A DNA stretch of 64,000 nt from Delphinus delphis (lineage: Eukaryota > Chordata > Mammalia > Artiodactyla > Delphinidae): the NCBI RefSeq assembly GCF_949987515.2, contig NW_027192659.1, positions 3,348,001 through 3,412,000 on the forward strand, given 5' to 3'. Position 1 is the first letter of the stretch. Every line of letters begins with the position of its first letter. Shown one piece after another: positions 1-33,735 of this stretch. The position numbers and the translations under genes are program-made. Below the pieces are notes generated by a model, which searched no databases, was not told the origin of the DNA, and saw only the letters and a program-made list of their open reading frames with translations.

Positions 1-3000
1 AGGGGGAGCGTACGTGTGAGGGCGTGGGTTAGTGTTAGCGTACGGGTTAGGATTAGGGGACGGGTGAGGGTCAGGCTTCGGGGAAGGGTTAGGGTTAGGG
101 TTCGTGCTAGGGTTATGGTTAGGGGACGGGGACGGTTTAGGGTCCAGGGTAGGGTACGACAACGCTTCAGGGGGAGCGTACGTGTGAGGGCGCGGGTTAG
201 TGATAGCGTACGGGTTAGGATTAGGGGACGGGTGAGGGTCAGGCTTCGGGGAAGGGTTAGGGTTAGGGTTCGGGCTAGGGTTAGGGTTAGGAGACGGGAC
301 CGGTTTAGGTTCCAGGGGAGGGTACGACAACGCTTTAGGGGGAGCGTAGGTGTGAGGGCGCGGGTTAGTGTTAGCGTACGGGTTAGGATTAGGGGACATG
401 TGGGGGTCAGGCTTCGGGGAAGGGTTAGGGTTAGGGTTCGGTCTAGGGTTAGGGTTAGGGGAAGGGGACGGTTTAGGGTCCAGGGGAGGGTACGACAACG
501 CTTTAGGGGGAGCGTATGTGTGAGGGCATGAGTTAGTGTTAGTGTACGGGTTAGGATTAGGGGACGGGTGAGGGTCAGGCTCTGGGGAAGTGTTAGGGTT
601 AGGGTTCGGGCTAGGGTTAGGGTTAGGGGACGGGGACGGTTTAGGGTCCAGGGGAGGGTACGACAACGCTTTAGGGGGAGCGTACGTGTGAGGGCGCGGG
701 TTAGTGTTAGCGTACGGGTTAGGATTAGGGGACGGGTGAGGGTCAGGTTTCGGGGAAGGGTTAGGGTTTGGGCTATGGTTAGGGATAGGGGACGGGGACG
801 GTTTAGGGTCCAGGGGAGGGTACGACAACGCTTTTGGGGGAGCGTACGTGTGAGGGTGCGGGTTAGTGTTAGCGTACGGTTTAGGATTGGCGAACGGGTG
901 AGGGTCAGGCTTAGGGGAAGGTTTAGGGTTAGGGTTCGGGCTAGGGTAAGGGTTAGGGGACGGGGACGGTTTAGGGTGCAGGGGAGGGTACGACAACGCT
1001 TTAGGTGGAGCGTAAGTGTGAGGGCGCGGGTTAGTGTTAGCGTACGGGTTAGGATTAGGGGACGGGTGAGGGTCAGGCTTCGGGGAAGGGTTAGGGTTAG
1101 GGTTCGGGCTAGGGTTAGGGTTAGGGGACGGGGACGGTTTAGGGTCCAGGGGAGGGTACGACAACGCTTTAGGGGGAGCGTACGTGTGAGGGCGCGGGAT
1201 AGTGTTTGCGTACGGGTTAGGATTAGGAGACGGCTGAGGGTCAGGCTTCGGGGAAGTGTTAGGGTTAGGGTTCGGGCTAGGGTTAGGGTTAGGGGAAGGG
1301 GACGGTTTAGGGTCCAGGGGAGGGTACGACAATGCTTTAGGGGGAGCGTATGTGTGAGGGCATGAGTTAGTGTTAGTGTGCGGGTTAGGATTAGGGGACG
1401 GGTGAGGGTCAGGCTCTGGGGAAGTGTTAGGCTTAGGGTTCGGGCTAGGGTTAGGGTTAGGGGACGGGGACGGTTTAGGGTCCAGGGGAGGGTACGACAA
1501 CGCTTTAGGGGGAGCATACGTGTGAGGGCGCGGGTTAGTGTTAGCGTACGGGTTAGGATTAGGGGACGGGTGAGGGTCAGGTTTCGGGGAAGGGTTAGGG
1601 TTTGGGCTATGGTTAGGGATAGGGGACGGGGACGGTTTAGGGTCCAGGGGAGGGTACGATGACGCTTTAGGGGGAGGGTACGTGTGAGGGCGCGGGTTAG
1701 TGTTAGCGTACGGGTTAGGATTAGGGGACGGGTGAGGGTCAGGCTTCGGGGAAGGGTTAGGGTTAGGGTTCGGTCTAGGGTTAGGGTTAGGGGACTGGGA
1801 CAGTTTAGGGTCCAGGGGAGGGTATGACAACGCTTTAGGGGGAGCGTACGTGTGAGGGCGCGGGTTAGTGTTAGCGTACGGGTTAGGATTAGGGGACGGG
1901 TGAGGGTCAGGCTTCGGGGAAGTGTTAGGGTTAGGGGACGGGGACGGTTTAGGGTCCAGGGGAGGGTACGACAACGCTTTAGGGGGAACGTACGTGTGAG
2001 GGCGTGGGTTAGTGTTAGCGTATGGGTTAGGATTAGGGGACGGGTGACGGTCAGGCGTCGGGGAAGGGTTAGGGTTAGGGTTCGTGCTAGGGTTAGGGTT
2101 AGGGGACGGAGATGGTTTAGGGTCCAGGGTAGGGTACGACAACGCTTTAGGGGGAGCGTACGTGTGAGGGCGCGGGTTAGAGTTAGCGTACGGGTTAGGA
2201 TTAGGGGACGGGTGAGGGTCAGGCTTCGGGGAACGGTTAGGGTTAGGGTTCGGGCTAGGGTTAGGGTTAGGGGACGGGGACGGTTTAGGGTCCAGGTGAG
2301 GGTACGACAACGCTTTAGGGGGAGCGTACGGGTGAGGGCGCGGGTTAGAGTTAGCGTACGGGTTAGGATTACGGGACGGGTGAGGGTCAGGCTTCGGGGA
2401 AGGTTTAGGGTTAGGGTTCGGGCTAGGGTAAGGGTTAGGGGACGGGGACGGTTTAGGGTGCAGGGGAGGGTACGACAACGCTTTAGGGGGAGCGTAAGGG
2501 TGAGGGCGCCGGTTAGTGTTAGCGTACGGGTTAGGATTAGGGGACGGGTGAGGGTCAGACTTCGGGGAAGGGTTAGGGTTAGTGTTCGGGCTAGGGTTAG
2601 GGTTAGGTGACGGGGACGGTTTAGGGTCCAGGCGAGGGTACGACAACGCTTTAGGGGGAGCGTACGTGTGAGGGCGCGGGTTAGTGTTAGCGTACGGGTT
2701 AGGATTAGGGGACGAGTGAGGGTCAGGCTTCGGGGAAGGGTCAGGGTTAGGGTTCGGGCTAGCGTTAGGGTTAGGGGACGGGGACGGTTTAGGGTCCAGG
2801 GGAGGGTACGACAATGCTTTAGGGGGAGCGTACCTGTGAGGGCGCGGGTTAGTGTTAGCGTACGGGTTAGGATTATGGGACGGGTGAGGGTCAGGCTTCG
2901 GGGAAGGCTTAGGGTTAGGGTTCGGGCTAGGGTTAGGGTTAGGGGACGGGGACGGTTTAGGGTCCAGGGGAGGGTACGACAACGCTTTTGGGCGAGCGTA

Positions 3001-5331
3001 CGTGTGAGGGTGTGGGTTAGTGTTAGCGTACGGGTTAGGATTAGGGGACGGGTGAGGGTCAGGCTTCGGGGTAGGATTAGGGTTAGGGTTTGGGCTAGGG
3101 ATAGGTTTAGGGGACGGGGACGGTTTAGGGTCCAGGGGAGGGTACGACAACGCTTTAGGGGGAGGGTACGTGTGAGGGCGCGGGTTAGTGTTAGCGTACG
3201 TGTTAGGATTAGGGGACGGGTGAGGGTCAGGCTTCGGGGAAGGCTTAGGGTTAGGGTTCGGGCTAGGGTTAGGGTTAGGGGACGGGGACGGTTTAGGGTT
3301 CAGGGGAGGGTACGACCATGCTTTAGGGGGAGCGTACGTGTGAGGGCGCGGGTTAGGGTTAGCGTACGGTTTAGGATTAGGGGACGGGTGAGGGTAAGGC
3401 TTCGGGGAAGGGTTAGGGTTAGGGTTCGGGCTAGGGTTCGGGTTAGGGGACGGGGACGGTTTAGGGTCCAGGGGAGGGTACGACAACGCCTAGGGGGAGG
3501 GTACGTGTTTGGGCGCGGGTTAGTGTTAGCGTACGGGTTAGGATTAGGGGACGGGTGAGGGTCAGGCTTCGGGGAAGCGTTAGGGTTAGGGTTCGTGCTA
3601 GGGTTAGGGTTAGATGACGGGGACGGTTTAGGGTCCAGGGGAGGGTACGACAATGCTTTAGGGGGAGCGTACGTGTGAGGGCGCGGGTTAGTGTTAGAGT
3701 ACGGGTTAGGATTAGGGGACGGGTGAGGGTCAGGCTTCGAGGAAGGGTTAGGGTTAGGGTTCGGGCTAGGGTTAGGGTTAGGGGACGGGGACGGTTTAGG
3801 GTCCAGGGGAGGGTACGACGACGCTTTAGGGGGAGGGTACGTGTTAGGGAGCGGGTTAGTGTTAGCGTACTGGTTAGGATTAGGGGACGGTTGAGGGTCA
3901 GGCTTCGGGGAAGGGTTAGGGTTAGGGTTCGGGCTAGGGTTAGGGTTAGGGGACTGGGACAGTTTAGGGTCCAGGGGAGGGTATGACAACGCTTTAGGGG
4001 GAGCGTACGTGTGAGGGCGCGGGTTGGTGTTAGCGCACGTGTTAGGATTAGGGGACGGGTGACGGTCAGGCTTCGGGGAATGGTTAGGGTTAGGGTTCGG
4101 GCTAGGGTTAGGGTTAGGGGACGGGGACGGTTTAGGGTCCAGGGGAGGGTACGACAACGCTTCAGGGGGAACGTACGTGTGAGGGCGTGGGTTAGTGTTA
4201 GCGTATGGGTTAGGATTAGGGGACGGGTGACGGTCAGGCGTCGGGGAAGCGTTAGGGTTAGGGTTCGTGCTAGGGTTAGGGTTAGGGGACGGAGATGGTT
4301 TAGGGTCCAGGGGAGGGTACGACAACGCTTTAGGGGGAGCGTACGTGAGAGGGCGCGGGTTAGAGTTAGCGTACGGGTTAGGATTACGGGACGGGTGAGG
4401 GTCAGGCTTCGGGGAAGGGTTAGGGTTAGGGTTCGGGCTAGGGTTAGGGTTAGGGGACGGGGAAGGTTTAGGGTCCAGGTGAGGGCACGACAACGCTTTA
4501 GGGGGAGCGTACGTGTGAGGGCGCGGGTTAGTGTTAGCGTACGGGTTAGGATTAGGGGACGGGTGAGGGTCAGGCTTCGGGGAAGTGTTAGGGTTACGGT
4601 TCGGTCTAGGGATAGGGTTAGGGGAAGGGGACGGTTTAGGGTCCAGGGGAGGGTACGACAACGCTTTAAGGGGAGCGTAGGTGTGAGGGCGCCGGTTAGT
4701 GTTAGCGTAAGGGTTAGGATTAGGGGACGGGTGAGGGTCATGCTTCGGGGAAGCGTTAGGGTTTGGGCTAGGTTTAGGGTTAGGGGACGGGGACGGTTTA
4801 GGTTCCAGGGGAGGGTACGACAACGCTTTAGGGGGAGTGTAGGTGTGAGGGATCGGGTTAGTGTTAGCGTACGGGTTAGGATTAGGGGACGGGTGAGGGT
4901 CAGGCTTCGGGGAAGAGCTAGGGTTAGGGTTCGGGCTAGGGTTAGGGTTAGGGGACGGGGACGGTTTAGGGTCCAGGGGAGGGTACGACAACGCTTTAGG
5001 GGAGCGTACGTGTGAGGGCGCGGGTTAGTGTTAGCGTACGTGTTAGGATTAGGGGACGGGTGAGAGTCAGGCTCTGGGGAAGTGTTACGGTTAGGGTTCG
5101 GCTAGGGTTAGGGTTAGGGGATGGGGACGGTTTAGGGTCCAGGTGTGGGTACGACAACGCTTTAGGGGGAGCATACGTTTGAGGGCGAGGGTTAGTGTTA
5201 GCGTACGGGTTAGGATTAGGGGACGGGTGAGGGTCAGGCTTCGGGGAAGGGTTAGGGTTAGGGTTCTGGCTAGGGTTAGGGTTAGGTGACGGGGACTGTT
5301 TAGGGTCCAGGGGAGGGTACGACAACGCTTT
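1..5331 (+). repeat. Higher-order block A of the 168-bp array
   Basis: Unit-specific variants in this block recur in the same order 5,331 bp downstream: the 16-531 stretch reappears at 5,347-5,862 and 568-1,365 at 5,899-6,696. Between about 1,683 and 1,851 it holds one extra 168-bp unit, and further on it lacks two units that block B has, so the offset changes from 5,331 to 5,163 and then 5,499. Point differences from B are few, for example GAGCATACG near 1,513 against GAGAATACG near 6,844, and CGGTTTAGG near 3,367 against CGGGTTAGG. The block start is arbitrary because the array begins before the window. Confidence 0.85.
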
Positions 5332-8300
5332 AGGGGGAGCGTACGTGTGAGGGCGTGGGTTAGTGTTAGCGTACGGGTTAGGATTAGGGGACGGGTGAGG
5401 GTCAGGCTTCGGGGAAGGGTTAGGGTTAGGGTTCGTGCTAGGGTTATGGTTAGGGGACGGGGACGGTTTAGGGTCCAGGGTAGGGTACGACAACGCTTCA
5501 GGGGGAGCGTACGTGTGAGGGCGCGGGTTAGTGATAGCGTACGGGTTAGGATTAGGGGACGGGTGAGGGTCAGGCTTCGGGGAAGGGTTAGGGTTAGGGT
5601 TCGGGCTAGGGTTAGGGTTAGGAGACGGGACCGGTTTAGGTTCCAGGGGAGGGTACGACAACGCTTTAGGGGGAGCGTAGGTGTGAGGGCGCGGGTTAGT
5701 GTTAGCGTACGGGTTAGGATTAGGGGACATGTGGGGGTCAGGCTTCGGGGAAGGGTTAGGGTTAGGGTTCGGTCTAGGGTTAGGGTTAGGGGAAGGGGAC
5801 GGTTTAGGGTCCAGGGGAGGGTACGACAACGCTTTAGGGGGAGCGTATGTGTGAGGGCATGAGTTAGTGTTAGTGTACGGGTTAGGATTAGGGGACGGGT
5901 GAGGGTCAGGCTCTGGGGAAGTGTTAGGGTTAGGGTTCGGGCTAGGGTTAGGGTTAGGGGACGGGGACGGTTTAGGGTCCAGGGGAGGGTACGACAACGC
6001 TTTAGGGGGAGCGTACGTGTGAGGGCGCGGGTTAGTGTTAGCGTACGGGTTAGGATTAGGGGACGGGTGAGGGTCAGGTTTCGGGGAAGGGTTAGGGTTT
6101 GGGCTATGGTTAGGGATAGGGGACGGGGACGGTTTAGGGTCCAGGGGAGGGTACGACAACGCTTTTGGGGGAGCGTACGTGTGAGGGTGCGGGTTAGTGT
6201 TAGCGTACGGTTTAGGATTGGCGAACGGGTGAGGGTCAGGCTTAGGGGAAGGTTTAGGGTTAGGGTTCGGGCTAGGGTAAGGGTTAGGGGACGGGGACGG
6301 TTTAGGGTGCAGGGGAGGGTACGACAACGCTTTAGGTGGAGCGTAAGTGTGAGGGCGCGGGTTAGTGTTAGCGTACGGGTTAGGATTAGGGGACGGGTGA
6401 GGGTCAGGCTTCGGGGAAGGGTTAGGGTTAGGGTTCGGGCTAGGGTTAGGGTTAGGGGACGGGGACGGTTTAGGGTCCAGGGGAGGGTACGACAACGCTT
6501 TAGGGGGAGCGTACGTGTGAGGGCGCGGGATAGTGTTTGCGTACGGGTTAGGATTAGGAGACGGCTGAGGGTCAGGCTTCGGGGAAGTGTTAGGGTTAGG
6601 GTTCGGGCTAGGGTTAGGGTTAGGGGAAGGGGACGGTTTAGGGTCCAGGGGAGGGTACGACAATGCTTTAGGGGGAGCGTATGTGTGAGGGCATGAGTTA
6701 GTGTTAGTGTGCGGGTTAGGATTAGGGGACGGGTGAGGGTCAGGCTCTGGGGAAGTGTTAGGCTTAGGGTTCGGGCTAGGGTTAGGGTTAGGGGACGGGG
6801 ACGGTTTAGGGTCCAGGGGAGGGTACGACAACGCTTTAGGGGGAGAATACGTGTGAGGGCGCGGGTTAGTGTTAGCGTACGGGTTAGGATTAGGGGACGG
6901 GTGAGGGTCAGGTTTCGGGGAAGGGTTAGGGTTTGGGCTATGGTTAGGGATAGGGGACGGGGACGGTTTAGGGTCCAGGGGAGGGTACGATGACGCTTTA
7001 GGGGGAGGGTACGTGTGAGGGCGCGGGTTAGTGTTAGCGTACGGGTTAGGATTAGGGGACGGGTGAGGGTCAGGCTTCGGGGAAGTGTTAGGGTTAGGGG
7101 ACGGGGACGGTTTAGGGTCCAGGGGAGGGTACGACAACGCTTTAGGGGGAACGTACGTGTGAGGGCGTGGGTTAGTGTTAGCGTATGGGTTAGGATTAGG
7201 GGACGGGTGACGGTCAGGCGTCGGGGAAGGGTTAGGGTTAGGGTTCGTGCTAGGGTTAGGGTTAGGGGACGGAGATGGTTTAGGGTCCAGGGTAGGGTAC
7301 GACAACGCTTTAGGGGGAGCGTACGTGTGAGGGCGCGGGTTAGAGTTAGCGTACGGGTTAGGATTAGGGGACGGGTGAGGGTCAGGCTTCGGGGAACGGT
7401 TAGGGTTAGGGTTCGGGCTAGGGTTAGGGTTAGGGGACGGGGACGGTTTAGGGTCCAGGTGAGGGTACGACAACGCTTTAGGGGGAGCGTACGTGTGAGG
7501 GCGCGGGTTAGAGTTAGCGTACGGGTTAGGATTACGGGACGGGTGAGGGTCAGGCTTCGGGGAAGGTTTAGGGTTAGGGTTCGGGCTAGGGTAAGGGTTA
7601 GGGGACGGGGACGGTTTAGGGTGCAGGGGAGGGTACGACAACGCTTTAGGGGGAGCGTAAGGGTGAGGGCGCCGGTTAGTGTTAGCGTACGGGTTAGGAT
7701 TAGGGGACGGGTGAGGGTCAGACTTCGGGGAAGGGTTAGGGTTAGTGTTCGGGCTAGGGTTAGGGTTAGGTGACGGGGACGGTTTAGGGTCCAGGCGAGG
7801 GTACGACAACGCTTTAGGGGGAGCGTACGTGTGAGGGCGTGGATTAGTGTTAGCGTACGGGTTAAGATTAGGGGACGGGTGAGGGTCAGGCTTTGGGGAA
7901 GTGTTTGGGTTAGGGTTCGGGCTAGGGATAGGATTAGGTGACGGGGACGGTTTAGGGTCCAGGGGAGGGTACGACAACGCTTTAGGGGGAGCATACGTGT
8001 GAGGGCACGGATTAGTGTTAGCGTACGGGTTAGGATTAGGGGACGGGTGAGGGTCAGGCTTCGGGGAAGATTTAGGGTTAGGGTTCGGGCTAGGGTTAGG
8101 GTTAGGGGACGGGGACGGTTTAGGGTACAGGGGAGGGTACGACAACGCTTTAGGGGGAGCGTACGTGTGAGGGCGCGGGTTAGTGTTAGCGTACGGGTTA
8201 GGATTAGGGGACGAGTGAGGGTCAGGCTTCGGGGAAGGGTCAGGGTTAGGGTTCGGGCTAGCGTTAGGGTTAGGGGACGGGGACGGTTTAGGGTCCAGGG

Positions 8301-10830
8301 GAGGGTACGACAATGCTTTAGGGGGAGCGTACCTGTGAGGGCGCGGGTTAGTGTTAGCGTACGGGTTAGGATTATGGGACGGGTGAGGGTCAGGCTTCGG
8401 GGAAGGCTTAGGGTTAGGGTTCGGGCTAGGGTTAGGGTTAGGGGACGGGGACGGTTTAGGGTCCAGGGGAGGGTACGACAACGCTTTTGGGCGAGCGTAC
8501 GTGTGAGGGTGTGGGTTAGTGTTAGCGTACGGGTTAGGATTAGGGGACGGGTGAGGGTCAGGCTTCGGGGTAGGATTAGGGTTAGGGTTTGGGCTAGGGA
8601 TAGGTTTAGGGGACGGGGACGGTTTAGGGTCCAGGGGAGGGTACGACAACGCTTTAGGGGGAGGGTACGTGTGAGGGCGCGGGTTAGTGTTAGCGTACGT
8701 GTTAGGATTAGGGGACGGGTGAGGGTCAGGCTTCGGGGAAGGCTTAGGGTTAGGGTTCGGGCTAGGGTTAGGGTTAGGGGACGGGGACGGTTTAGGGTTC
8801 AGGGGAGGGTACGACCATGCTTTAGGGGGAGCGTACGTGTGAGGGCGCGGGTTAGGGTTAGCGTACGGGTTAGGATTAGGGGACGGGTGAGGGTCAGGCT
8901 TCGGGGAAGGGTTAGGGTTAGGGTTCGGGCTAGGGTTAGGGTTAGGGGACGGGGACGGTTTAGGGTCCAGGGGAGGGTACGACAACGCCTAGGGGGAGGG
9001 TACGTGTTTGGGCGCGGGTTAGTGTTAGCGTACGGGTTAGGATTAGGGGACGGGTGAGGGTCAGGCTTCGGGGAAGCGTTAGGGTTAGGGTTCGTGCTAG
9101 GGTTAGGGTTAGATGACGGGGACGGTTTAGGGTCCAGGGGAGGGTACGACAATGCTTTAGGGGGAGCGTACGTGTGAGGGCGCGGGTTAGTGTTAGAGTA
9201 CGGGTTAGGATTAGGGGACGGGTGAGGGTCAGGCTTCGAGGAAGGGTTAGGGTTAGGGTTCGGGCTAGGGTTAGGGTTAGGTGACGGGGACGGTTTAGGG
9301 TCCAGGGGAGGGTACGACGACGCTTTAGGGGGAGGGTACGTGTTAGGGAGCGGGTTAGTGTTAGCGTACTGGTTAGGATTAGGGGACGGTTGAGGGTCAG
9401 GCTTCGGGGAAGGGTTAGGGTTAGGGTTCGGGCTAGGGTTAGGGTTAGGGGACTGGGACAGTTTAGGGTCCAGGGGAGGGTATGACAACGCTTTAGGGGG
9501 AGCGTACGTGTGAGGGCGCGGGTTGGTGTTAGCGCACGTGTTAGGATTAGGGGACGGGTGACGGTCAGGCTTCGGGGAATGGTTAGGGTTAGGGTTCGGG
9601 CTAGGGTTAGGGTTAGGGGACGGGGACGGTTTAGGGTCCAGGGGAGGGTACGACAACGCTTCAGGGGGAACGTACGTGTGAGGGCGTGGGTTAGTGTTAG
9701 CGTATGGGTTAGGATTAGGGGACGGGTGACGGTCAGGCGTCGGGGAAGCGTTAGGGTTAGGGTTCGTGCTAGGGTTAGGGTTAGGGGACGGAGATGGTTT
9801 AGGGTCCAGGGGAGGGTACGACAACGCTTTAGGGGGAGCGTACGTGAGAGGGCGCGGGTTAGAGTTAGCGTACGGGTTAGGATTACGGGACGGGTGAGGG
9901 TCAGGCTTCGGGGAAGGGTTAGGGTTAGGGTTCGGGCTAGGGTTAGGGTTAGGGGACGGGGAAGGTTTAGGGTCCAGGTGAGGGCACGACAACGCTTTAG
10001 GGGGAGCGTACGTGTGAGGGCGCGGGTTAGTGTTAGCGTACGGGTTAGGATTAGGGGACGGGTGAGGGTCAGGCTTCGGGGAAGTGTTAGGGTTACGGTT
10101 CGGTCTAGGGATAGGGTTAGGGGAAGGGGACGGTTTAGGGTCCAGGGGAGGGTACGACAACGCTTTAAGGGGAGCGTAGGTGTGAGGGCGCCGGTTAGTG
10201 TTAGCGTAAGGGTTAGGATTAGGGGACGGGTGAGGGTCATGCTTCGGGGAAGCGTTAGGGTTTGGGCTAGGTTTAGGGTTAGGGGACGGGGACGGTTTAG
10301 GTTCCAGGGGAGGGTACGACAACGCTTTAGGGGGAGTGTAGGTGTGAGGGATCGGGTTAGTGTTAGCGTACGGGTTAGGATTAGGGGACGGGTGAGGGTC
10401 AGGCTTCGGGGAAGAGCTAGGGTTAGGGTTCGGGCTAGGGTTAGGGTTAGGGGACGGGGACGGTTTACGGTCCAGGGGAGGGTACGACAACGCTTTAGGG
10501 GAGCGTACGTGTGAGGGCGCGGGTTAGTGTTAGCGTACGTGTTAGGATTAGGGGACGGGTGAGAGTCAGGCTCTGGGGAAGTGTTACGGTTAGGGTTCGG
10601 CTAGGGTTAGGGTTAGGGGATGGGGACGGTTTAGGGTCCAGGTGTGGGTACGACAACGCTTTAGGGGGAGCATACGTTTGAGGGCGAGGGTTAGTGTTAG
10701 CGTACGGGTTAGGATTAGGGGACGGGTGAGGGTCAGGCTTCGGGGAAGGGTTAGGGTTAGGGTTCTGGCTAGGGTTAGGGTTAGGTGACGGGGACTGTTT
10801 AGGGTTCAGGGGAGGGTACGACAACGCTTT
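5332..10830 (+). repeat. Higher-order block B of the 168-bp array
   Basis: This near-copy of block A differs by whole-unit losses and gains plus scattered point changes. Its next repetition starts at 10,831 (5,347 corresponds to 10,846), a period of 5,499 bp, which is 5,331 plus one unit. Stepwise differences of exactly 168 bp are what unequal exchange in register produces. The second half of B (8,799-10,514) matches 3,300-5,015 of A almost perfectly. Confidence 0.85.
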
Positions 10831-13800: not shown

Positions 13801-15177
13801 TGGGACAGTTTAGGGTCCAGGGGAGGGTATGACAACGCTTTAGGGGGAGCGTACGTGTGAGGGCGCGGGTTGGTGTTAGCGCACGTGTTAGGATTAGGGG
13901 ACGGGTGAGGGTCAGGCTTCGGGGAATGGTTAGGGTTAGGGTTCGGGCTAGGGTTAGGGTTAGGGGACGGGGACGGTTTAGGGTCCAGGGGAGGGTACGA
14001 CAACGCTTCAGGGGGAACGTACGTGTGAGGGCGTGGGTTAGTGTTAGCGTATGGGTTAGGATTAGGAGACGGGTGACGGTCAGGCGTCGGGGAAGCGTTA
14101 GGGTTAGGGTTCGTGCTAGGGTTAGGGTTAGGGCACGGAGATGGTTTAGGGTCCAGGGGAGGGTACGACAACGCTTTAGGGGGAGCGTACGTGTGAGGGC
14201 GCGGGTTAGAGTTAGCGTACGGGTTAGGATTACGGGACGGGTGAGGGTCAGGCTTCGGGGAAGGGTTAGGGTTAGGGTTCGGGCTAGGGTTAGGGTTAGG
14301 GGACGGGGAAGGTTTAGGGTCCAGGTGAGGGCACGACAACGCTTTAGGGGGAGCGTACGTGTGAGGGCGCGGGTTAGTGTTAGCGTACGGGTTAGGATTA
14401 GGGGACGGGTGAGTGTCAGGCTTCGGGGAAGGGTTAGGGTTACGGTTCGGTCTACGGATAGGGTTAGGGGAAGGGGACGGTTTAGGGTCCAGGGGAGGGT
14501 ACGACAACGCTTTAAGGGGAGCGTAGGTGTGAGGGCGCCGGTTAGTGTTAGCGTAAGTGTTAGGATTAGGGGACGGGTGAGGGTCATGCTTCGGGGAAGC
14601 GTTAGGGTTTGGGCTAGGGTTAGGGTTAGGGGACGGGGACGGTTTAGGTTCCAGGGGAGGGTCCGACAACGCTTTAGGGGGAGTGTAGGTGTGAGGGATC
14701 GGGTTAGTGTTAGCGTACGGGTTAGGATTAGGGGACGGGTGAGGGTCAGGCTTCGGGGAAGAGCTAGGGTTAGGGTTCGGGCTAGGGTTAGGGTTAGGGG
14801 ACGGGGACGGTTTAGGGTCCAGGGGAGGGTACGACAACGCTTTAGGGGAGCGTACGTGTGAGGGCGCGGGTTAGTGTTAGCGTACGTGTTAGGATTAGGG
14901 GACGGGTGAGAGTCAGGCTCTGGGGAAGTGTTACGGTTAGGGTTCGGCTAGGGTTAGGGTTAGGGGATGGGGACGGTTTAGGGTCCAGGTGTGGGTACGA
15001 CAACGCTTTAGGGGGAGCATACGTTTTAGGGCGAGGGTTAGTGTTAGCGTACGGGTTAGGATTAGGGGACGGGTGAGGGTCAGGCTTCGGGGAAGGGTTA
15101 GGGTTAGGGTTCTGGCTAGGGTTAGGGTTAGGTGACGGGGACTGTTTAGGGTCCAGGGGAGGGTACGACAACGCTTT
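10831..15177 (+). repeat. Higher-order block C, shortened, of the 168-bp array
   Basis: Block C opens with the same units as B (10,846-11,014), then departs. It rejoins the A/B order from about 12,345, so that 14,861 corresponds to 10,514 in B and 5,015 in A. The period here is about 4,347 bp, so over a kilobase of units is missing relative to B. A one-base loss at the 5,015 / 10,514 / 14,861 position (GGGG for GGGGG before AGCG) breaks the hexamer frame in all three blocks and serves as a shared marker. Confidence 0.75.
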
Positions 15178-23000: not shown

Positions 23001-23254
23001 CGGTTTAGGGTCCAGGGGAGGGTACGACAACGCTTTAGGGGGAGCGTACGTGTGAGGGCGCGGGTTAGTGTTAGCGTACGGGTTAGGATTAGGGGACGGG
23101 TAAGGGTCAGGCTTCGGGGAAGGGTTAGGGTTAGGGTTCGGGCTAGGGTTAGGGTTAGGGGACGGGGACGGTTTAGGGTCCAGGGGAGGGTACGACAATT
23201 CTTTAGGGGGATTGCAGGTGTGAGGGCGCCGGTTAGTGTTAGCGTACGGGTTAG
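17057..23254 (+). repeat. 6,198-bp higher-order block, first copy
   Basis: Everything from about 17,057 recurs 6,198 bp later. Markers include the short unit with GGGCGCTATTAGTG (17,364; again 23,562), the run GCATGAGTTAG (18,036; 24,234) and the truncated spacing near 19,300 (25,498). In all stretches I compared base by base, and across many long conceptual translations on both strands, I found no difference from the second copy. The block is about 37 units with a net loss of 18 bp. Identity first breaks near 17,055, where this copy has GGTTAAGATT and the second has GGTTAGGATT. Confidence 0.9.
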
Positions 23255-26200
23255 GATTAGGGGACGGGTGAGGGTCAGGCTTTGGGGAAGGGTTAGGGTT
23301 AGGGTTCGGGCTAGGGTTAGGATTAGGTGACGGGGACGGTTTAGGTTCCAGGGGAGGGTACGACAACGCTTTAGGGGGAGCGTACGTGTGAGGGCACGGG
23401 TTAGTGTTAGCGTACGGGTTAGGATTAGGGGACGGGTGAGGGTCATGCTTCGGGGAAGGGTTAGGGTTAGGGTTCGGGCTAGGGTTAGGGTTAGGGGACG
23501 GGGACGGTTTAGGGTCCAGGGGAGGGTACGACAACGCTTTAGGGGGAGCGTACGTGTGAGGGCGCTATTAGTGTTAGTGTACGGGATAGGATTAGGGGAC
23601 GGGTGAGGGTCAGGCTTCGGGGAATTGTTAGGGTTAGGGTTCGGGCTAGGGTTAGAGTTAGGGGACGGGGACGGTTTAGGGTCCAGGGGAGGGTACGACA
23701 ACGCTTTAGGGGGAGCGTACGTGTGAGGGCGCGCGTTACTGTTCGCGTACGGGTTAGGATTAGGGGACGGGTGAGGGTCAGGCTTCGGGGAAGTGTTAGG
23801 GTTAGGGTTCAGGCTAGGATTAGGGTTAGGAGACGGGGCCGGTTTAGGTTCCAGGGGAGGGTACGACAACGCTTTAGGGGGAGCGTACGTGTGAGGGCGC
23901 GCGTTACTGTTCGCGTTCGGGTTAGGATTAGGGGACGGGTGAGGGTCAGGCTTCGGGGAAGGGTTAGGGTTAGGGTTCGGGCTAGGGTTAGGTTTAGGAG
24001 ACGGGACCGGTTTAGGTTCCAGGGGAGGTTACGACAACGCTTTATGGGGAGCGTAGGTGTGAGGGCGCGGGTTAGTGTTAGCGTACGGGTTAGGAATAGG
24101 GGACGCGTGGGGGTCAGGCTTCGGGGAAGGGTTAGGGTTAGGGTTCGGTCTAGGGTTAGGGTTAGGGGAAGGGGACGGTTTAGGGTCCAGGGGAGGGTAC
24201 GACAACGCTTTAGGGGGAGCGTATGTGTGAGGGCATGAGTTAGTGTTAGTGTACGGGTTAGGATTAGGGGACGGGTGAGGTTCAGGCTCTGGGGAAGTGT
24301 TAGGGTTACGGTTCGGGCTAGGGTTAGGGTTACGGGACGGGGACGGTTTAGGGTCAAGGGGAGGGTACGACAATGCTTTAGGGGGAGCGTACGTGTGAGG
24401 GCGCGGGTTAGTGTTAGTGTACGGGTTAGGATTAGGGGACGGGTGAGGGTCAGGTTTCGGGGAAGGGTTAGGGTTTGGGCTAGGGTTAGGGTTAGGGGAC
24501 GGGGACGGTTTAGGGTCCAGGGGAGGGTACGACAACGCTTTTGGGGGAGCGTACGTGTGAGGGTGCGGGTTAGTGTTAGCCTACGGTTTAGGATTAGCGA
24601 ACGGGTGAGGGACAGGCTTCGGGGAAGGTTTAGGGTTAGGGTTCGGGCTAGGGTTAGGGTTACGGGACGGGGAAGGTTTAGGGTCCAGGGGAGGGTACGA
24701 GAACGCTTTAGGGGGAGCGTAGGTGTGAGGGCGCGGGTTAGTGTTAGCGTACGGGTTAGGATTAGGGGACGGGTGAGGGTCAGGCTTCGGGGAAGGCTTA
24801 GGGTTAGGGTTCGGGCTAGGGTTAGGGTTAGGGGACGGGGCCGGTTTAGGTTCCAGGGGAGGGTACGACAACGCTTTAAGGGGAGCGTAGGTGTGAGGGC
24901 GCGGGTTAGTGTTAGCGTACGGGTTAGGATTAGGGGACGCGTGGGGGTCAGGCTTCGGGGAAGGGTTAGGGTTAGGGTTCGGTCTAGGGTTAGGGTTAGG
25001 GGAAGGGGACGGTTTAGGGTCCAGGGGAGGGTACGACAACGCTTTAGGGGGTGCGTATGTGTGAGGGCATGAGTTAGTGTTATTGTACGGGTTAGGATTA
25101 GGGGACGGGTGAGGGTCAGGCTCTGGGGAAGTTTTAGGGTTAGGGTTCGGGCTAGGGTTAGGGTTAGGGGACGGGGACGGTTTAGAGTCCAGGGGAGGGT
25201 ACGACAACGCTTTAGGGGGAGCGTACGTGTGAGGGCGCGGGTTAGTGTTAGCGTACGGTTTAGGATTAGGGGACGGGTGAGGGTCAGGCTTCGGGGAAGG
25301 GTTAGGGTTAGGGTTCGGGCTAGGGTTAGGGTTAGGGGACGGGGACGGTTTAGGGTCCAGGGGAGGGTACGACAACACTTTAGGGGGAGCGTACGTGTGA
25401 GGGCGCGGGTTAGTGTTCGCGTACGGGTTAGGATTAGGGGACGGATGAGGGTCAGGCTTCAGGGAAGTGTTAGGGTTAGGTTTCGGTCTAGGGTTAGTGT
25501 AGGGGACGGGGCCGGTTTAGGGTCCAGGGGAGGGTACGACAACGCTTCAGGGGGAGCGTACGTGTGAGGGTGCGGGTTAGTCTTAGCGTACGGGTTAGGA
25601 TTAGGGGACGGGTGAGGGTCAGCCTTCGGGGAAGTGTTAGGTTTAGGGTTCGGGCTAGGTTTAGGGTTAGGGGGTGGGGACGGTTTAGGGTCCAGGGGAG
25701 GGTACGACAACGCTTTAGGGGTAGCGTACGTGTGAGGGCGTGGGTTAGTGTTAGCGTACGGGTTAGGATTAGGGGACGGGTGAGGGTCAGGCTTCGGGGA
25801 AGGGTTAGGGTTAGGGTTCGGGCTAGGGTTAGGGTTAGGGGACGGTGACGGTTTAGGGTCCATGGGAGGTTACGACAACGCTTTAGGAGGAGCGTATGTG
25901 TGACAGCGCGGGTTAGTGTTAGCGTACGGGTTAGGATTAGGGGACGGGTGAGTGTCAGGCTTCGGGGAAGGCTTATGGTTAGGGTTCGGGCTAGGGTTAG
26001 GGTTAGGGGACGGGGATGGTTTAGGGTCCAGTGGAGGGTACGACAACGCTTTTCTGGGAGCGTAGGTGTGAGGGCGTGGGTTAGTGTTAGCTTACGGGTT
26101 AGGATTAGGGGACGGGTGAGGGTCAGGCTTCGGGGAAGTGTTAGGGTTAGGGTTCGGGCTAGGGTTAGGGTTAGGGGACGGGGACGGTTTAGGGTCCAGG

Positions 26201-29200
26201 TGAGGGTACGACAACGCTTTAGGGGGAGCGTACGTGTGAGGGCGCGGGTTAGTGTTAGCGTACAGGTTAGGATTAGGGGACGGGTGAGGGTCAGGCTTCG
26301 GGGAAGGGTTAGGGTTAGGGTTCGGGCTAGGGTTAGGGTTAGGGGACGGGGACGGTTTAGGGTCCAGGGAGGGTACGACAATGCTTTAGTGGGATTGCAG
26401 GTGTGAGGGCGCCGGTTAGTGTTAGCGTACGGGTTAGGATTAGGGGACGGCTGAGGGTCAGGCTTCGGGGAAGTGTTAGGGTTAGGGTTCGGGCTAGGGT
26501 TAGGGTTAGGGGACGGGGACGGTTTAGGGTCCAGGGGAGGGTACGACAACGCTTTAGGGGGAGCGTACGTGTGAGGGCGCGGGTTAGTGTTAGCGTACGG
26601 GTTAGGATTAGGGGACGGGTGAGTGTCAGGCTTCGGGGAAGGGTTAGGGTTAGGGTTCGGGCTAGGGTTAGGGTTAGGGGACGGGGACGGTTTAGCGTCC
26701 AGGGGAGGGTACGACAACGCTTTAGGGGTGTGTACGTGTGAGGGCGCAGGATACTGTTAGCGTACGGGTTAGGATTAGGGGACGGGTGAGGGTCAGGCTT
26801 CGGGGAAGTGTTAGGGTTAGGTTTCGGTCTAGGGTTAGTGTTAGGGGACGGGGCCGGTTTAGGGTCCAGGGGATGGTACGACAACGCTTTAGGGGGAGCG
26901 TACGTGTGAGGGCGCGGGTTAGTCTAACGTATGGGTAAGGATTAGGGGACGGGTGAGGGTCAGGCTTCGGGGAAGGGTTAGGGTTAGGGTTCGGTCTAGG
27001 GTTAGGTTTACGGGACGGGGACGGTTTAGGGTCCATGGGAGGGTACGACAACGCTTTAGGGGGATTGCAGGTGTGAGGGCGCTGGTTAGTGTTAGCGTAC
27101 GGGTTAGGATTAGGGGACGGGTGAGGGTCAGGCTTCGGGGAAGGGTTAGTGTTAGGGTTCGGGCTAGGGTTAGGGTTAGGGGACGGGGACGGTTTAGGGT
27201 CCAGGAGAGTGTACGACAACGCTTTAGGGGGAGCGTACGTGTGAGGGCGCGGGTTAGTTTTAGCGTACGGGTTAGGATTAGGGGACGGGTGAGTGTCAGG
27301 CTTCGGGGAAGGGTTAGGGTTAGGGTTCGGGCTAGGGTTAGGGTTAAGAGACGGGGCCGGTTTAGGGTCCAGGGGAGGGTACGACAACGCTTTAGGGGGA
27401 GCGTATGTGTAAGGGCGCGGGTTAGTGTTAGCGTACGGGTTAGGATTAGAGGACGGGTGAGGGTCAGGCTTCGGGGAAGGGTTAGGGTTAGGGTTCGGTT
27501 TAGGGTTAGGCTTAGGGGACAGGGACGGTTTAGGGTCCAGGGGAGGGTATGACAACGCTTTAGGGGGAGCGTACGTGTGAGGGCGCGGTTTAGTGTTAGC
27601 ATACGGGTTAGGATTATGGGACGGATGAGGGTCAGGCTCTGGGGAAGGGTTAGGGTTAGGGTTCGGGTAGGGTTAGGGTTAGGTGACGGGGACGGTTTAG
27701 GTTCCAGGGGAGGGTACGACAACGCTTTAGGGGGAGCGTACGTGTGAGGGCGCGGGTTAGTGTTAGCGTACGGGTTAGGATTAGGGGCCGGGTGAGGGTC
27801 TGGCTTCGGGGAAGGGTTAGGGTTAGGGTTCGGGCTAGGGTTAGGGTTAGGGGACGGGGACGGTTTAGGGTCCAGGTGAGGGTACGACAACGCTTTAGGG
27901 GGAACGTACGTGTGAGGGCGCGGGTTAGTGTTAGCGTACGGGTTAGGATTAGGAGACGGGTGAGGGTCAGGCTTCAGGGAAGTGTTAGGGTTAGGGTTCG
28001 GGCTAGGGTTAGGGTTAGGGGACGGGGACGGTTTAGGGTCCAGGGGAGGGTACGACAAGGCTTTACGGGGAGCGTACGTGTGAGGGCGCGGGTTAGTGTT
28101 AGCGTACGGGTTAGGATTAGGGGACCGGTGAGGGTCAAGCTTCGGGGAAGGGGTAGGGTTAGGGTTCGGGCTAGGGTTAGGGTTAGGGGACGGGGACGGT
28201 TTAGGGTCCAGGTGAGGGTACGACAATGCTTTAGGGGGAGCGTACGTGTGAGGGCGTGGGTTAGTGTTAGCGTACGGCTTAGGATTAGGGGACAGGTGAG
28301 GGTCAGGCTTCGGGGAAGGGTTAGGGTTAGGGTTCGGGCTAGGTGTAGGGTTTGGGGACGGGGACGGTTTAGGGTCCAGGGGAGGGTACGACAACGCTTT
28401 AGGGGGAGCGTATGTGTGAGGGCATGAGTTAGTGTTAGTGTACGGGTTAGGATTAGGGGATGGGTGAGGGTCAGGTTTCGGGGAAGGGTTAGGGTTTGGG
28501 CTAGGGTTAGGGTTAGGGGACGGGGACGGTTTAGGGTCCAGGGGAGGGTACGACAACGCTTTTGGGGGAGCGTACGTGTGAGGGTGCGGGTTAGTGTTAG
28601 CGTACGGTTTAGGTTTAGGGGACGGGTGAGGGTCAGGCTTCGGGGAAGGTTTAGGGTTAGGGTTCGGGCTAGGGTTAGGGTTACGGGATGGGGACGGTTT
28701 AGGGTCCAGGCGAGGGTACGAGAACGCTTTAGGGGGAGTGTAGGTGTGAGGGCACGGGTTAGTGTTAGCGTACGGGTTAGGATTAGGGGACGGGTGAGGG
28801 TCAGGCTTCGGGGAAGGCTTAGGGTTAGGGTTCGGGCTAGGGTTAGGGTTAGGGGACGGGGAAGGTTTAGGGTCCAGGTGAGGGTACGACAACGCTTTAG
28901 GGGGAGCGTACGTGTGAGGGCGCGGGTTAGTGTTAGCGTACGGGTTAGGATTAGGGGACGGGTGAGGGTCAGGCTTCGGGGAAGGTTTAGGGTTAGGGTT
29001 CGGGCTAGGGTTAGCGTTAGGGGACGGGGAAGGTTTAGCGTCCAGTGGAGGGTACGACAACGCTTTACGGGGAGCGTAGGTGTGAGGGCGCGGGTTAGTG
29101 TTAGCGTACGGGTTAGGATTAGGGGACGGGTGAGGGTCAGGCTTCGGGGAAGTGTTAGGGTTAGGGTTCGGGCTAGGGTTAGGGTTAGGGGACGGGGACG

Positions 29201-29452
29201 GTTTAGGGTCCAGGGGAGGGTACGACAACGCTTTAGGGGGAGCGTACGTGTGAGGGCGCGGGTTAGTGTTAGCGTACGGGTTAGGATTAGGGGACGGGTA
29301 AGGGTCAGGCTTCGGGGAAGGGTTAGGGTTAGGGTTCGGGCTAGGGTTAGGGTTAGGGGACGGGGACGGTTTAGGGTCCAGGGGAGGGTACGACAATTCT
29401 TTAGGGGGATTGCAGGTGTGAGGGCGCCGGTTAGTGTTAGCGTACGGGTTAG
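23255..29452 (+). repeat. 6,198-bp higher-order block, second copy
   Basis: Direct tandem copy of 17,057-23,254. Identity ends near 29,453: the first copy runs on into a unit with GGCTTTGGGGAAGG (23,279), whereas here the unit reads GGATCAGGCTTCGGGG. Such perfect agreement next to blocks A-C, which differ by point changes and unit losses, implies either a very recent unequal exchange or an assembly duplication. Confidence 0.9.
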
Positions 29453-31087
29453 GATTAGGGGACGGGTGAGGATCAGGCTTCGGGGAAGTGTTATGGTTAG
29501 GGTTCGGGCTAGGGTTAGGGTTAGGGTACGGGGACGGTTCAGGGTCCAGGGGAGGGTACGACAACGCTTTAGAGGGAGCGTACGTGTGAGGGCGCGGGTT
29601 AGTGTTAGCGTACGGGTTAGGATTAGGGGACGGGTGAGTGTCAGGCTTCGGGGAAGGGTTAGGGTTAGGGTTCGGGCTAGGGTTAGGGTTAGGGGATGGG
29701 GACGGTTTAGGGTCCAGGGGAGGGTACGACAACGCTTTAGGGGAACCGTACGTGTGAGGGCGCAGGTTACTGTTAGCGTACGGGTTAGGAATAGGGGACG
29801 GGTGAGGGTCAGGCTTCGGGGAAGGGTTAGGGTTAGGGTTCGGGCTAGGGTTAGGATTAGGTGACGGGGACGGTTTAGGGTCCAGGAGAGGGTACGACAA
29901 CGCTTTAGGGGGAGCGTACGTGTGAGGGCGCGGGTTAGTGTTAGCGTACGGGTTAGGATTAGGGGACGGGTGAGGGTCAGGCTTCGGGGAAGGGTTAGGG
30001 TTAGGGTTCGGGCTAGGGTTAGGGTTAGGTGACGGGGACGGTTTAGGGTCCAGGGGAGGGTACGACAACGCTTTTGGTGGAGCGTACGTGTGAGGGCGCG
30101 GGTTAGTGTTAGCGTACGGGTTAGGATTAGGGGACGGGTGAGGGTCAGGCTTCGGGGAAGGGTTAGGGTTAGGGTTCGGGCTACGGTTAGGGTTAGGGGA
30201 CGGGGACGGTTTAGGGTCCAGGGGCGGGTACGACAACGCTTTAGGGGGAGATTACGTGTGAGGGCGCGGGTTAGTGTTAGCGTACGGGTAAGGATTAGGG
30301 GACGGGTGAGGGTCAGGCTTCGGGGAATGGTTAGGGTTAGGGTTCCGGCTAGGGTTAGGGTTAGGGGACGGGGACGGTTTAGGGTCCAGGGGAGGGTACG
30401 ACAACGCTTTAGGGGGAGCGTACATCTGAGGGCGTGGGTTAGTGTTAGCGTACGGGTTAGGACTAGGGGACGGGTGAGGGTCAGGTTTCGTGGAAGGGTT
30501 AGGGTTAGGGTTCGGGCTAGGGTTAGGGTTAGGGGACGGGGACGGTTTAGGGTCCAGGAGAGGGTACGACAACGCTTTAGGGGGAGCGTACGTGTGAGGG
30601 CGTGGGTTAGTGTTAGCGTACGGGTTTGGATTAGGGGACGCGTGAGGGTCAGGCTTCGGGGAAGGGTTAGAGTTAGGGTTCGGGTTAGGGTTAGCGTTAG
30701 GGGACGGGGACGGTTTAGGGTCCATGTGAGGGTACGACAACGCTTTAGTGGGAGCGTACGTGTGAGGGCGCGGGTTAGTGTTAGCGTACGGGTTAGGATT
30801 AGGGGACGGGTGAGGGTCAGGCTTCGGGGAAGGGTTAGGGTTAGGGTTCGGGCTAGGGTAAGGGTTGGGGGACAGGGACGGTTTAGGGTCCAGGTGAGGG
30901 TATGACAACGCTTTAGGGGGAACGTACGTGTGAGGGCGTGGGTTAGTGTTTGCCTACGGGTTAGGATTAGGGGACGGGTGAGGGTCAGACTTCGGGGAAG
31001 GGTTAGGGTTAGGGTTCAGGCTAGGGTTAGTGTTAGGGGACGGGGACGGTTTAGGGTCCAGGGGCGGGTACGACAACGCTTTAGGGG
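29453..31087 (+). repeat. Ordinary 168-bp units outside the duplicated blocks
   Basis: About ten units close to the general consensus, each with private changes, for example GAGATTACGTGTG at 30,248 and GTACATCTGAGGG at 30,420. They do not repeat as a block in this window and grade into the divergent edge subfamily to the right. Confidence 0.75.
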
Positions 31088-32685
31088 GAGCGTACGTGTG
31101 AGGGCGCCGGTTAGTGTTAGCGTACGGGTTAGGATTAGGGGACGTGTGAGGGGAAGGCTTCGGGGAAGGGTTAGGGTTAGGGTTCCGGCTCGGCTTAGTG
31201 TTAGGGGACGGGGATGGTTTAGGGTCCAGGTGAGGGTACGACAACGGTTTAGGGGGAGCATACGTGTGAGGGCACGGGTTAGTGTTACCATATGGGTTAG
31301 GATTAGGGGACGGGTGAGGGGAAGGCTTCGGCGAAGGGTTAGGGTTAGGGATCGGGCTGGAATTAGGGTTAGGGGAAGGGGACGGTTTAGGGTCCAGATG
31401 AGGGTACGACAATGGTTTAGGGGGAACGTACGTGTGCGGGCACAGGTTAGTGTTAGTGTACGGGTTAGGATTAGGGGATGTGTGAGGGGAAGGCTTCGGG
31501 GAAGCTTTAGGGTTAGGGTTCGGGCTAGAGTTAAGGGTAGGGGACGGGGACGGTTTAGGGTCCTCGTAAGGGTATGACAACGTTTCAGGGGGAGCGTACG
31601 TGTGAGGGCACGGGTTAGTGTTAGCGTACGGGTTAGGATTAGGGGACGTGTGAGGGGAAGGCTTAGGGAAGGGTTAGGGTTAGGTTTCGGTCTAGGGTTA
31701 GGGGTAGGGGACGGGGACGGTTTAGGGTCCAGGTGAGGGTTCGAGAACGGTTCACAGGGAGCGTACGTGTGAGGGCACGGGTTAGTGTTAGTGTACGGGT
31801 TCGGATTAGGGGACGTGTGAGGGGAAGGTTTCGGGGAAGGGTTAGGGGTAGGGTTCGGTCTAGGGTTAGGTGTAGGGGAAGGGGACGGTTTAGGGTCCAG
31901 GTGAGGGTACGACAACTGTTTAGGGGGAGCGTACGTGTGAGGGCATAGTTTATTTTAGCGTACGGGTTAGGATTAGGGTACGGGTGAGTGGAAGGCTCCT
32001 GGGAAGGTTTAGGGTTAGGTTTCCAGCTAGGGTTAGGGTTAGGGGATGGGGACGGTTTAGGGTCCAGGTTGGGTATGACAACGGTTTAGGGGGAGCGTAC
32101 GTGTGAGGGCACGGGTTAGTGTTAGCGTACGGCTTAGGAGTAGGGGACGGGTGAGGGGAAGGCTTCGGGGAAGGTTTAGTGTTAGGGTTCGGGCTAGGGT
32201 TAGAGTTAGGGGATGGGGACGGTTTAGGGTCCAGGTGAGGGTACGACAACGGTTCACGGGGAGCGTACGTGTGAGCGCACGGGTTAGTGTTAGCGTACGG
32301 GTTAGGATTATGGGACAGGTGAGGGGATGGATTCGGGGAAGGTTTATGTTTAGGGTTCGGGCTAGGGTTAGGGTTAGGGGACGGGGACGGTTTTGGGTCC
32401 AGGTGAGGGTACGACAACAGTTCACGGGGAGCGTACGTGTGAGGGCACGGTTTAGTTTTAGCGTACGGGTTAGGATTAGGTGACGGGTGAGGGGAAGGCT
32501 CCGGGGAGGTGTTAGGGTTAGGGTTCGGGCTAGGGTTAGGGTTAGGGTTTGAGTACGGTTTAGGGTCCAGGTGCGGGTACGAAAACGGTTTAGGGTGAGC
32601 GTACGTGTGAGGGCATGGGTTAGTGTTACCGTACGGTTTAGGACTTGGGAATGGGTTAGGGTAAGGCTTCGGGGAAGGGTTACGG
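31088..32685 (+). repeat. Divergent edge subfamily of the 168-bp satellite
   Basis: From the unit containing 31,150 onward, the common TGAGGGTCAGGC segment is replaced by TGAGGGGAAGGC in nearly every unit (31,150; 31,319; 31,487; 31,652; 31,820; 32,151; 32,320; 32,489). AGGGCACGGGTTAG also becomes usual in place of AGGGCGCGGGTTAG. Spacing stays near 168 bp, but random changes are more frequent. This is the usual picture of an array edge that no longer takes part in homogenisation. It stops at the junction with the 1.58-kb satellite. Confidence 0.8.
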
Positions 32686-32944
32686 TGGATCATACTCTGG
32701 GTTCCACATGCATGTTTTAGCTGAAGGAAGAATCCCTTAAACCTGGAGAGTTGAGACCCGTGTAATGGGGACCATGCAATATGACTTCAAAGGGTCTTCA
32801 TTTGCTCACCGAACCTCTCCAATCCTATCACTGCTGCGTTTATGCCCCTGTACACATGCTTGATTCTCTTTTGGAGACATAGCAATCCATAGGGTTTAAG
32901 ATCCTTACTAGTCAGGTACATTCTTAGGCGTTTAATATGCGGTG

Positions 32945-33640: not shown

Positions 33641-33665
33641 GATTTCCTTTGCAAGCTTGCTTGGG

Positions 33666-33735
33666 TGGCCAAAAAGGGCGTATGCGTTTTTTCCTGAATA
33701 TATTCAGGAAAAAACGCATACGCCCTTTTTGGCCA
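33666..33735. repeat. Spacer-free palindrome, one per satellite unit (mariner-like terminal sequence)
   Basis: Centred between 33,700 and 33,701 on GAATATATTC, the two 35-base arms are perfect reverse complements. The outer ends read TTGGCCAAAAAGGGCG or its complement, resembling the TTGGTTGGCCAAAAAG ends of mariner-type elements in cetartiodactyls, so a short non-autonomous mariner copy is the likely source. No TA duplication is clear at the edges. Equivalent palindromes: 35,245-35,316; 36,825-36,896; 38,405-38,476; 39,983-40,054; 41,562-41,633; 43,142-43,213; 62,324-62,395 (one mismatch pair); and a degenerate copy around 63,939. Weaker versions are centred at 44,757, 46,507, 48,246 and 54,780. 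Confidence 0.9.

What the first reader, a model, noticed from the sequence alone, without database searches (positions are those of the whole stretch)
1..32685. A satellite whose 168-bp unit is exactly 28 mutated TTAGGG hexamers
Phasing the unit in sixes from any TTAGGG leaves every hexamer recognisable as a variant of it, and most length variants change by whole hexamers. This implies the satellite arose by amplifying one frozen, degenerate stretch of telomere, then homogenised as a 168-mer. Telomere-related satellites exist at whale chromosome ends, but I do not know this unit as a described family.
Basis: partly seen in the sequence, partly recalled or inferred. Interest (0 to 1): 0.8.

Follow-up and report, generated by a model that had tools for sequence, protein, structure and literature searches.

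The report
Telomere-derived 168-base satellite DNA array
A long stretch of what is probably whale DNA is built from copies of a 168-letter unit that is itself 28 altered telomere repeats, a known kind of repeat DNA that seems to have grown out of old chromosome-end sequence by copying first small and then large blocks.

Summary
The array is real. Window 1..~32,686 holds 195 full tandem copies of a 168-bp unit. Its consensus lies in one hexamer phase against (TTAGGG)28: 121 of 168 bases match, against 67 +/- 4 in shuffles. Two parts of the reading fail. Most length variants are not whole hexamers: of 43, 25 are single-base deletions, 18 are multiples of six, none is an insertion. The unit is also not 28 independently mutated hexamers: 40 of 47 changes are transversions, all 11 A changes are to C, and 26 hexamer pairs share two or more derived bases (5.4 expected, 0 of 5,000 simulations). 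So variant hexamers were probably copied before the 168-mer was fixed. Neighbouring units are no more alike than distant ones; recent growth was by in-register blocks of 5-37 units, one exact over 6.2 kb. The right flank is a ~1,580-bp tandem repeat, the length in the title of a killer-whale satellite paper, so a toothed whale is likely. A terminal, telomere-related satellite is reported for baleen whales. Probably a new member of a known kind; no whale or satellite sequence database could be searched.

The parts
1..32686 (+). 168-bp satellite array, G-rich strand on +, 195 full units; left end lies outside the window
2678..2845 (+). one example unit, in GGGTTA phase (28 hexamers)
30772..32686 (+). 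edge of the array: units on average 8.6-9.9% from consensus (3-6% elsewhere, bins of 8 units); the consensus of the last 11 units differs in 4 of 28 hexamers
17057..23273 (+). block of about 37 units; its copy starts 6,198 bases further on and is identical over 6,217 bases
23255..29471 (+). second, identical copy of the 6.2-kb block
1..1514 (+). stretch repeated exactly at offset 5,331; part of a set of blocks in the left half with offsets from 4,179 to 9,846
32688..45322 (.). eight tandem units of ~1,580 bp (common cetacean satellite type), beginning at the array edge
60785..64000 (.). the same ~1,580-bp satellite again, same orientation: a partial unit, a full one and one cut by the window end

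Best explanation
This is a satellite DNA, probably of cetacean heterochromatin (inferred: a toothed whale), that descends from a telomeric tract. Steps shown: the unit is 28 in-phase telomere-like hexamers; variant hexamers are correlated, not independent; units form a loose star around one consensus; large in-register blocks have been duplicated; the array abuts a ~1,580-bp satellite array. Steps inferred: (1) a stretch of telomere, probably a zone of variant repeats next to a telomere or an interstitial block, had its variant hexamers copied by slippage or short conversion; (2) one 28-hexamer piece, of about nucleosome length, was amplified; (3) units then gathered mutations one by one; (4) unequal exchange or break-induced copying in register duplicates blocks of 5-37 units. 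It most likely has no sequence-specific job beyond bulk heterochromatin.
For: Phase and match to (GGGTTA)28. Correlated derived bases: 26 hexamer pairs share two or more, against 5.4 +/- 2.7 simulated with the array's own mutation spectrum (0 of 5,000) and 10.9 +/- 3.9 in column shuffles (1 of 3,000). All 11 changes of A are to C (2.6 expected, 0 of 5,000). Mean unit identity at lags 1-59 is 0.913-0.918, apart from lags 25, 26, 32, 33, 37 and 59, which match block offsets (0.919-0.934). Seven block copies of 5-37 units at 98.5-99.95% identity, one exact over 6,217 bp; 64% of the array lies in exact duplicates of 350 bp or more. Diverged edge units at the junction. Flank units spaced 1,578-1,580 bp.
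Against: No second species or second array was available, so the order of events rests on one array. Linkage between variants (32 site pairs with r2 > 0.3 among 79 variable sites, 4 in shuffles) shows subfamilies, so the star is not clean. Hexamer offsets inside the unit gave no significant inner period, so the copying cannot be traced step by step. The spectrum used in the simulation rests on few A and T changes (25 and 27 types). The exact 6.2-kb copy could be an assembly error.
Confidence: 0.68

Rival explanations
1. One reading: one degenerate stretch of telomere that decayed by ordinary point mutation was amplified as it stood.
For: No phase shift in 28 hexamers at gap penalties 4-6 and a simple one-step story.
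Against: 7 transitions to 40 transversions, against 15.5 +/- 3.2 transitions expected from the array's own spectrum (P 0.006); A to C in 11 of 11; shared multi-base variants.
Confidence: 0.15
2. The array is a working telomere-like domain: its intact nonamers hold TRF1/TRF2 and selection keeps them.
For: Three YTAGGGTTR sites (motif recalled) per consensus unit, 459 on the + strand of the array and none on the + strand of the right half; 218 non-overlapping quadruplex motifs on + against 1 (the - strand was not scanned).
Against: The three sites match the consensus exactly in 76%, 75% and 71% of 72 units, against 68 +/- 11% for the 66 CpG-free 9-column windows, so no clear extra conservation; no run of more than two perfect TTAGGG.
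Confidence: 0.12
3. A G-rich minisatellite that resembles telomere by chance.
For: Seven hexamers keep only 3 of 6 bases and one only 1.
Against: 121 of 168 in one phase against a maximum of 84 in 10,000 shuffles.
Confidence: 0.02
4. The large block duplications are assembly errors, and the true array has no such structure.
For: A 6,217-bp copy without one difference in an array whose units differ by ~8% from each other.
Against: The other six block copies are at 98.5-99.94% identity and lie at several different offsets, as a series of real events would leave.
Confidence: 0.15

Closest known systems
Terminal DNA satellite of whalebone whales (Adegoke, Arnason and Widegren 1993; not held, title and citing passages only)
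   Same: A cetacean satellite with terminal chromosome position (title); one citing paper uses it for telomere-related sequences in satellite DNA, another for TTAGGG as a satellite component (passages).
   Different: From recall its unit is about 422 bp, not a multiple of six; it is described for baleen whales. Its sequence could not be compared here.
Heterochromatic and subtelomeric interstitial telomeric blocks (het-ITS, degenerate subtelomeric TTAGGG-like blocks), e.g. Chinese hamster
   Same: Large telomere-like blocks that form satellite DNA, often flanked by satellites or mobile elements (review passages).
   Different: Here the higher unit is a fixed, diverged 168-mer without any run of three perfect TTAGGG.
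Common cetacean satellite (1,579-bp component of the killer whale)
   Same: Its length matches the immediate right neighbour of the array.
   Different: Different unit and composition from the array (43.5% against 59.0% G+C); reviews derive it from L1 (passages).
Telomere-similar tandem arrays of potato centromeres (Tek and Jiang 2004; title in a reference list only)
   Same: Large tandem arrays of telomere-similar sequence.
   Different: Plant, centromeric; not compared.

Membership tests
Satellite DNA (tandem array of a higher unit) | Many head-to-tail copies of one unit, one orientation | tested here: met
   195 full units aligned on the + strand; no CCCTAA in the array
Telomere-derived satellite / het-ITS | Unit built of TTAGGG-related hexamers beyond chance | tested here: met
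   121 of 168 against at most 84 in 10,000 shuffles
Telomere-derived satellite / het-ITS | Heterochromatic position | not testable with these tools
   Only inferred from the neighbouring satellite
Functional telomere | Long runs of perfect TTAGGG at a chromosome end | tested here: not met
   612 single and 250 double TTAGGG, no longer runs in the array; end position unknown
Terminal satellite of whalebone whales | Published unit sequence and length | not testable with these tools
   Paper not held; ~422 bp is recalled
Terminal satellite of whalebone whales | Terminal chromosome localisation | not testable with these tools
   Chromosome position of the window unknown; the genome search did not complete
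Common cetacean satellite (flank 32,688-45,322) | Unit of about 1,579 bp, tandem | tested here: met
   Units spaced 1,578-1,580 bp; six of the other seven units in the main block are 95.6-96.9% identical to the query unit, the last 88.6%; published length from a title
Common cetacean satellite (flank 32,688-45,322) | Sequence identity to the published satellite; similarity to the 3' part of L1 | not tested
   No published sequence was at hand; L1 similarity is reported in reviews (passages)

The most novel reading that the evidence does not exclude
The unit is a fossil of a telomere variant-repeat zone: a record, frozen at about nucleosome length, of how variant hexamers (an -AC family: GGGGAC, GGGTAC, GCGTAC, GACAAC) spread by copying inside a cetacean telomere or by misreading of the telomerase template, later lifted out and amplified beside the common cetacean satellite.
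Probability: 0.2. Interest if true: 0.55.

Novelty: new member of a known kind. Interest (0 to 1): 0.38.

Why it matters
Telomere-related satellites are known, but their path from TTAGGG to a long fixed unit is seldom readable. Here the phase is kept, so most bases have a known ancestor, and the pattern of changes can be used to tell decay from copying. It also warns that hexamer counts in whale assemblies can mislead: this array carries 34 TTAGGG per kb and the flanking satellite 1.2 CCCTAA per kb, and neither looks like a working telomere.

Tried and rejected
Inner period of the unit: the best hexamer offset from 1 to 13 scored 12 (offset 8), below the mean permuted maximum of 12.9 (95th percentile 15); offset 14 (84 bp) scored 14, but it counts each pair twice and was not in the permuted maximum. 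Oxidative-damage signature (G to T excess in the array): counts over 72 units look strong (136 G>T against 66 G>A outside CpG; higher at GGG and GGT than at AGG), and random sets of 8 units give 11.1 transitions: 29.8 transversions, but singleton changes do not differ much from the flanking repeats used as control (array 37:65; ~1,580-bp satellite 45:67; 593-bp repeat 89:125; shared changes 22:55, 10:18 and 17:30). I dropped it as array-specific; the difference in weighted counts stays open. Selection on TRF nonamers: no clear extra conservation. Edge units as the ancestral state: the edge consensus matches telomere at 122 of 168 against 121, no support. Relatives in public collections: no exact hit of a 32-base pattern in viral contigs or of a 21-base pattern in genome contigs; none of the 7,989 candidates scored matched one 224-aa reading of the array. 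The two contig collections are viral and prokaryotic, so this says nothing about whales. Pfam on five of the 21 flank reading frames listed: no family at E 0.01. Rfam at gathering thresholds: none. tRNA: none.

Literature: 10 answered searches in an open-access library that lacks most subscription journals; several listings were cut (for example 25 of 612). In the listings and passages that I saw, none describes a 168-bp telomere-like cetacean satellite. Passages in further papers were read without a relevant finding. The killer whale was in the set of one satellite-finder paper (passages), and a vertebrate-wide survey with 28 cetaceans reports a satellite catalogue (passages); their unit lists were not seen, so the unit may already be listed there.

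Full report
What is there. Window 1..32,686 is one tandem array with a 168-bp period (195.6 copies, 91% matches between copies). The G-rich strand is the + strand throughout, with about 59% G+C and a G skew of about 0.6 that ends between 32 and 34 kb. The array runs off the left end of the window. An alignment to a cyclic consensus gave 197 rows, of which 195 cover at least 140 of 168 columns; the 2 partial rows were dropped. Bases agree with the consensus at 95.8%.

Is the unit 28 hexamers? Yes. Read from GGGTTA the consensus is GGGTTA GTGTTA GCGTAC GGGTTA GGATTA GGGGAC GGGTGA GGGTCA GGCTTC GGGGAA GGGTTA GGGTTA GGGTTC GGGCTA GGGTTA GGGTTA GGGGAC GGGGAC GGTTTA GGGTCC AGGGGA GGGTAC GACAAC GCTTTA GGGGGA GCGTAC GTGTGA GGGCGC. 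In this phase 121 of 168 bases match (GGGTTA)28; the other phases match 14 to 78. The best phase of 5,000 mononucleotide shuffles averages 65.6 (highest 81), of 5,000 dinucleotide shuffles 66.9 (highest 84). A gapped alignment to an endless telomere wants no gap at penalties of 4, 5 and 6; at 3 it places four gaps around bases 118-137 that cancel out. Twenty of 28 hexamers keep at least 4 bases, seven keep 3, one keeps 1; AGGGGA and GACAAC fit another phase slightly better.

Length variants. An affine-gap alignment found 44 gap events, one of them at the junction. Of the other 43, 25 are single-base deletions, 16 remove six bases and 2 remove 24 (these 18 all placed at the same column); there is no insertion. 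Many are copies of each other at the offsets of the block duplications (4,179; 5,163; 5,331; 5,499; 6,198; 9,846). Merged by hand, that leaves 14 single-base deletions and at most 9 of whole hexamers.

How did the unit arise? From TTAGGG to the consensus there are 47 changes: 7 transitions and 40 transversions; A changed 11 times, always to C, and T mostly to G (11) or A (9). I simulated 28 hexamers with the same number of changes per ancestral base, placed at random, with targets drawn from the mutation spectrum seen among the array's own units outside CpG (25 A, 27 T and 115 G change types). Transitions: 15.5 +/- 3.2 expected, 7 seen (P 0.006). A to C: 2.6 expected, 11 seen (0 of 5,000). Hexamer pairs sharing two or more derived bases: 5.4 +/- 2.7 expected, 26 seen (0 of 5,000). 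A uniform spectrum gives the same answer. Shuffling each hexamer column gives 10.9 +/- 3.9 (1 of 3,000 reaches 26). So the hexamers did not decay independently. The simplest reading is that variant hexamers were copied as hexamers inside the tract before a 28-hexamer piece became the unit. No single inner period is significant, so this copying is inferred, not traced.

How has the array grown? Mean identity between units is flat: 0.913-0.918 at lags from 1 to 59, except lags 25, 26, 32, 33, 37 and 59 (0.919-0.934), which match block offsets. For variant counts I merged units at least 98% alike (single linkage): 83 of 195 remain, 72 core and 11 edge, and 112 near-copies were dropped. Variants per core unit average 8.0 with variance 13.4, and 32 pairs of 79 variable sites have r2 above 0.3 where shuffles give 4, so there are subfamilies. 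On top of this lie seven block copies of at least 5 units: one of 37 units at offset 6,198 and six of 5-17 units at offsets from 4,179 to 9,846, at 98.5-99.95% identity. The largest is exact over 6,217 bp, and 64% of the array lies in exact duplicates of at least 350 bp. An assembly error cannot be excluded for the exact one. Near the right edge units average 8.6-9.9% from the consensus, against 3-6% elsewhere, as at the edges of other satellite arrays (general knowledge).

Surroundings. The array stops at about 32,686; the exact join is ambiguous by a few bases. A second satellite begins at once: eight units spaced 1,578-1,580 bp up to 45,322, then worn copies to 48,761 (71-81% identical) and at 54,025-55,154 (90%), and fresh units again at 60,785-64,000. 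[quoted passage not shown] reviews say that the common cetacean satellite resembles L1 (passages). On period alone I take the window to be cetacean, probably a toothed whale; sequence identity to the published satellite was not tested.

Function. The consensus holds three YTAGGGTTR sites (recalled TRF motif); there are 459 on the + strand of the array and none on the + strand of the right half (the - strand was not scanned). Their exact conservation in 72 core units (76, 75 and 71%) is within the range of the 66 CpG-free 9-column windows (68 +/- 11%). No run of three perfect TTAGGG exists in the array. So there is no clear sign of selection for shelterin binding. CpG observed/expected is 1.26, against 0.20-0.44 in three neighbouring stretches. 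In the consensus 10 of 13 CpGs come from the A-to-C change before the next hexamer's G (my count). CpG columns vary about twice as much as others (7.9% against 3.6%).

Known or new? A terminal satellite of whalebone whales was published in 1993. I saw only its title and passages in two papers that cite it, one for telomere-related sequences as a component of satellite DNA and one for TTAGGG. Its unit of about 422 bp is recalled. The kind is therefore known. This unit was not found in ten searches of open-access papers, whose listings were partly cut and which do not cover Dfam, Repbase, most subscription journals or supplementary unit lists. A vertebrate-wide survey reports that satellite units cluster near 171 bp and its multiples (passage), which a 28-hexamer unit fits.

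A side result. A hourglass-dolphin assembly paper reports 254 highly repetitive contigs, 235 of them more than 4-fold enriched in TTAGGG, with low-diversity contigs of narrow G+C near 44%, and suggests that some are collapsed telomeric or subtelomeric regions (section read). The flanking satellite here has 43.5% G+C and 1.2 CCCTAA per kb, while this 168-bp array has 59% G+C. By G+C those contigs fit the common satellite better than this array or a telomere. Against it, the one control stretch here has 0.59 per kb of the two hexamers together, so the enrichment I can show is only about 2-fold. It remains a guess to be tested.

Noticed in passing
55152-60784: A 593-bp tandem repeat (about 9.5 copies, ~53-bp sub-repeats, CpG O/E 0.20) sits inside the ~1,580-bp satellite: unit position 1392 on its left side, 1022 on its right.
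   Followed up: partly
33666-33736 and the same place in other ~1,580-bp units: Units of the flanking satellite contain an inverted repeat of about 72 bp (84-100% identical to its own reverse complement across copies), like a small mariner-type element (label recalled).
   Followed up: no
32688-43746 with 61349-62928, 55152-60488, and 1-32686: All three repeats show few transitions outside CpG (singletons 45:67, 89:125, 37:65), lower than I expect for mammals. Cause unknown: mutation, my filtering of CpG and old CpG sites, or sequencing error.
   Followed up: partly
1-32686: All 43 internal length variants in the array are deletions against the consensus, none an insertion.
   Followed up: no
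1-32686: Because 168 is 3 x 56, the array holds open frames of over 1,000 codons by arithmetic alone; a gene caller could be misled.
   Followed up: yes
PMC12060246 (hourglass dolphin), compared with window 32688-45322: Contigs taken there as possibly telomeric from TTAGGG counts match the flanking satellite in G+C (about 44% against 43.5%); the hexamer enrichment seen here is only about 2-fold over one control stretch.
   Followed up: partly
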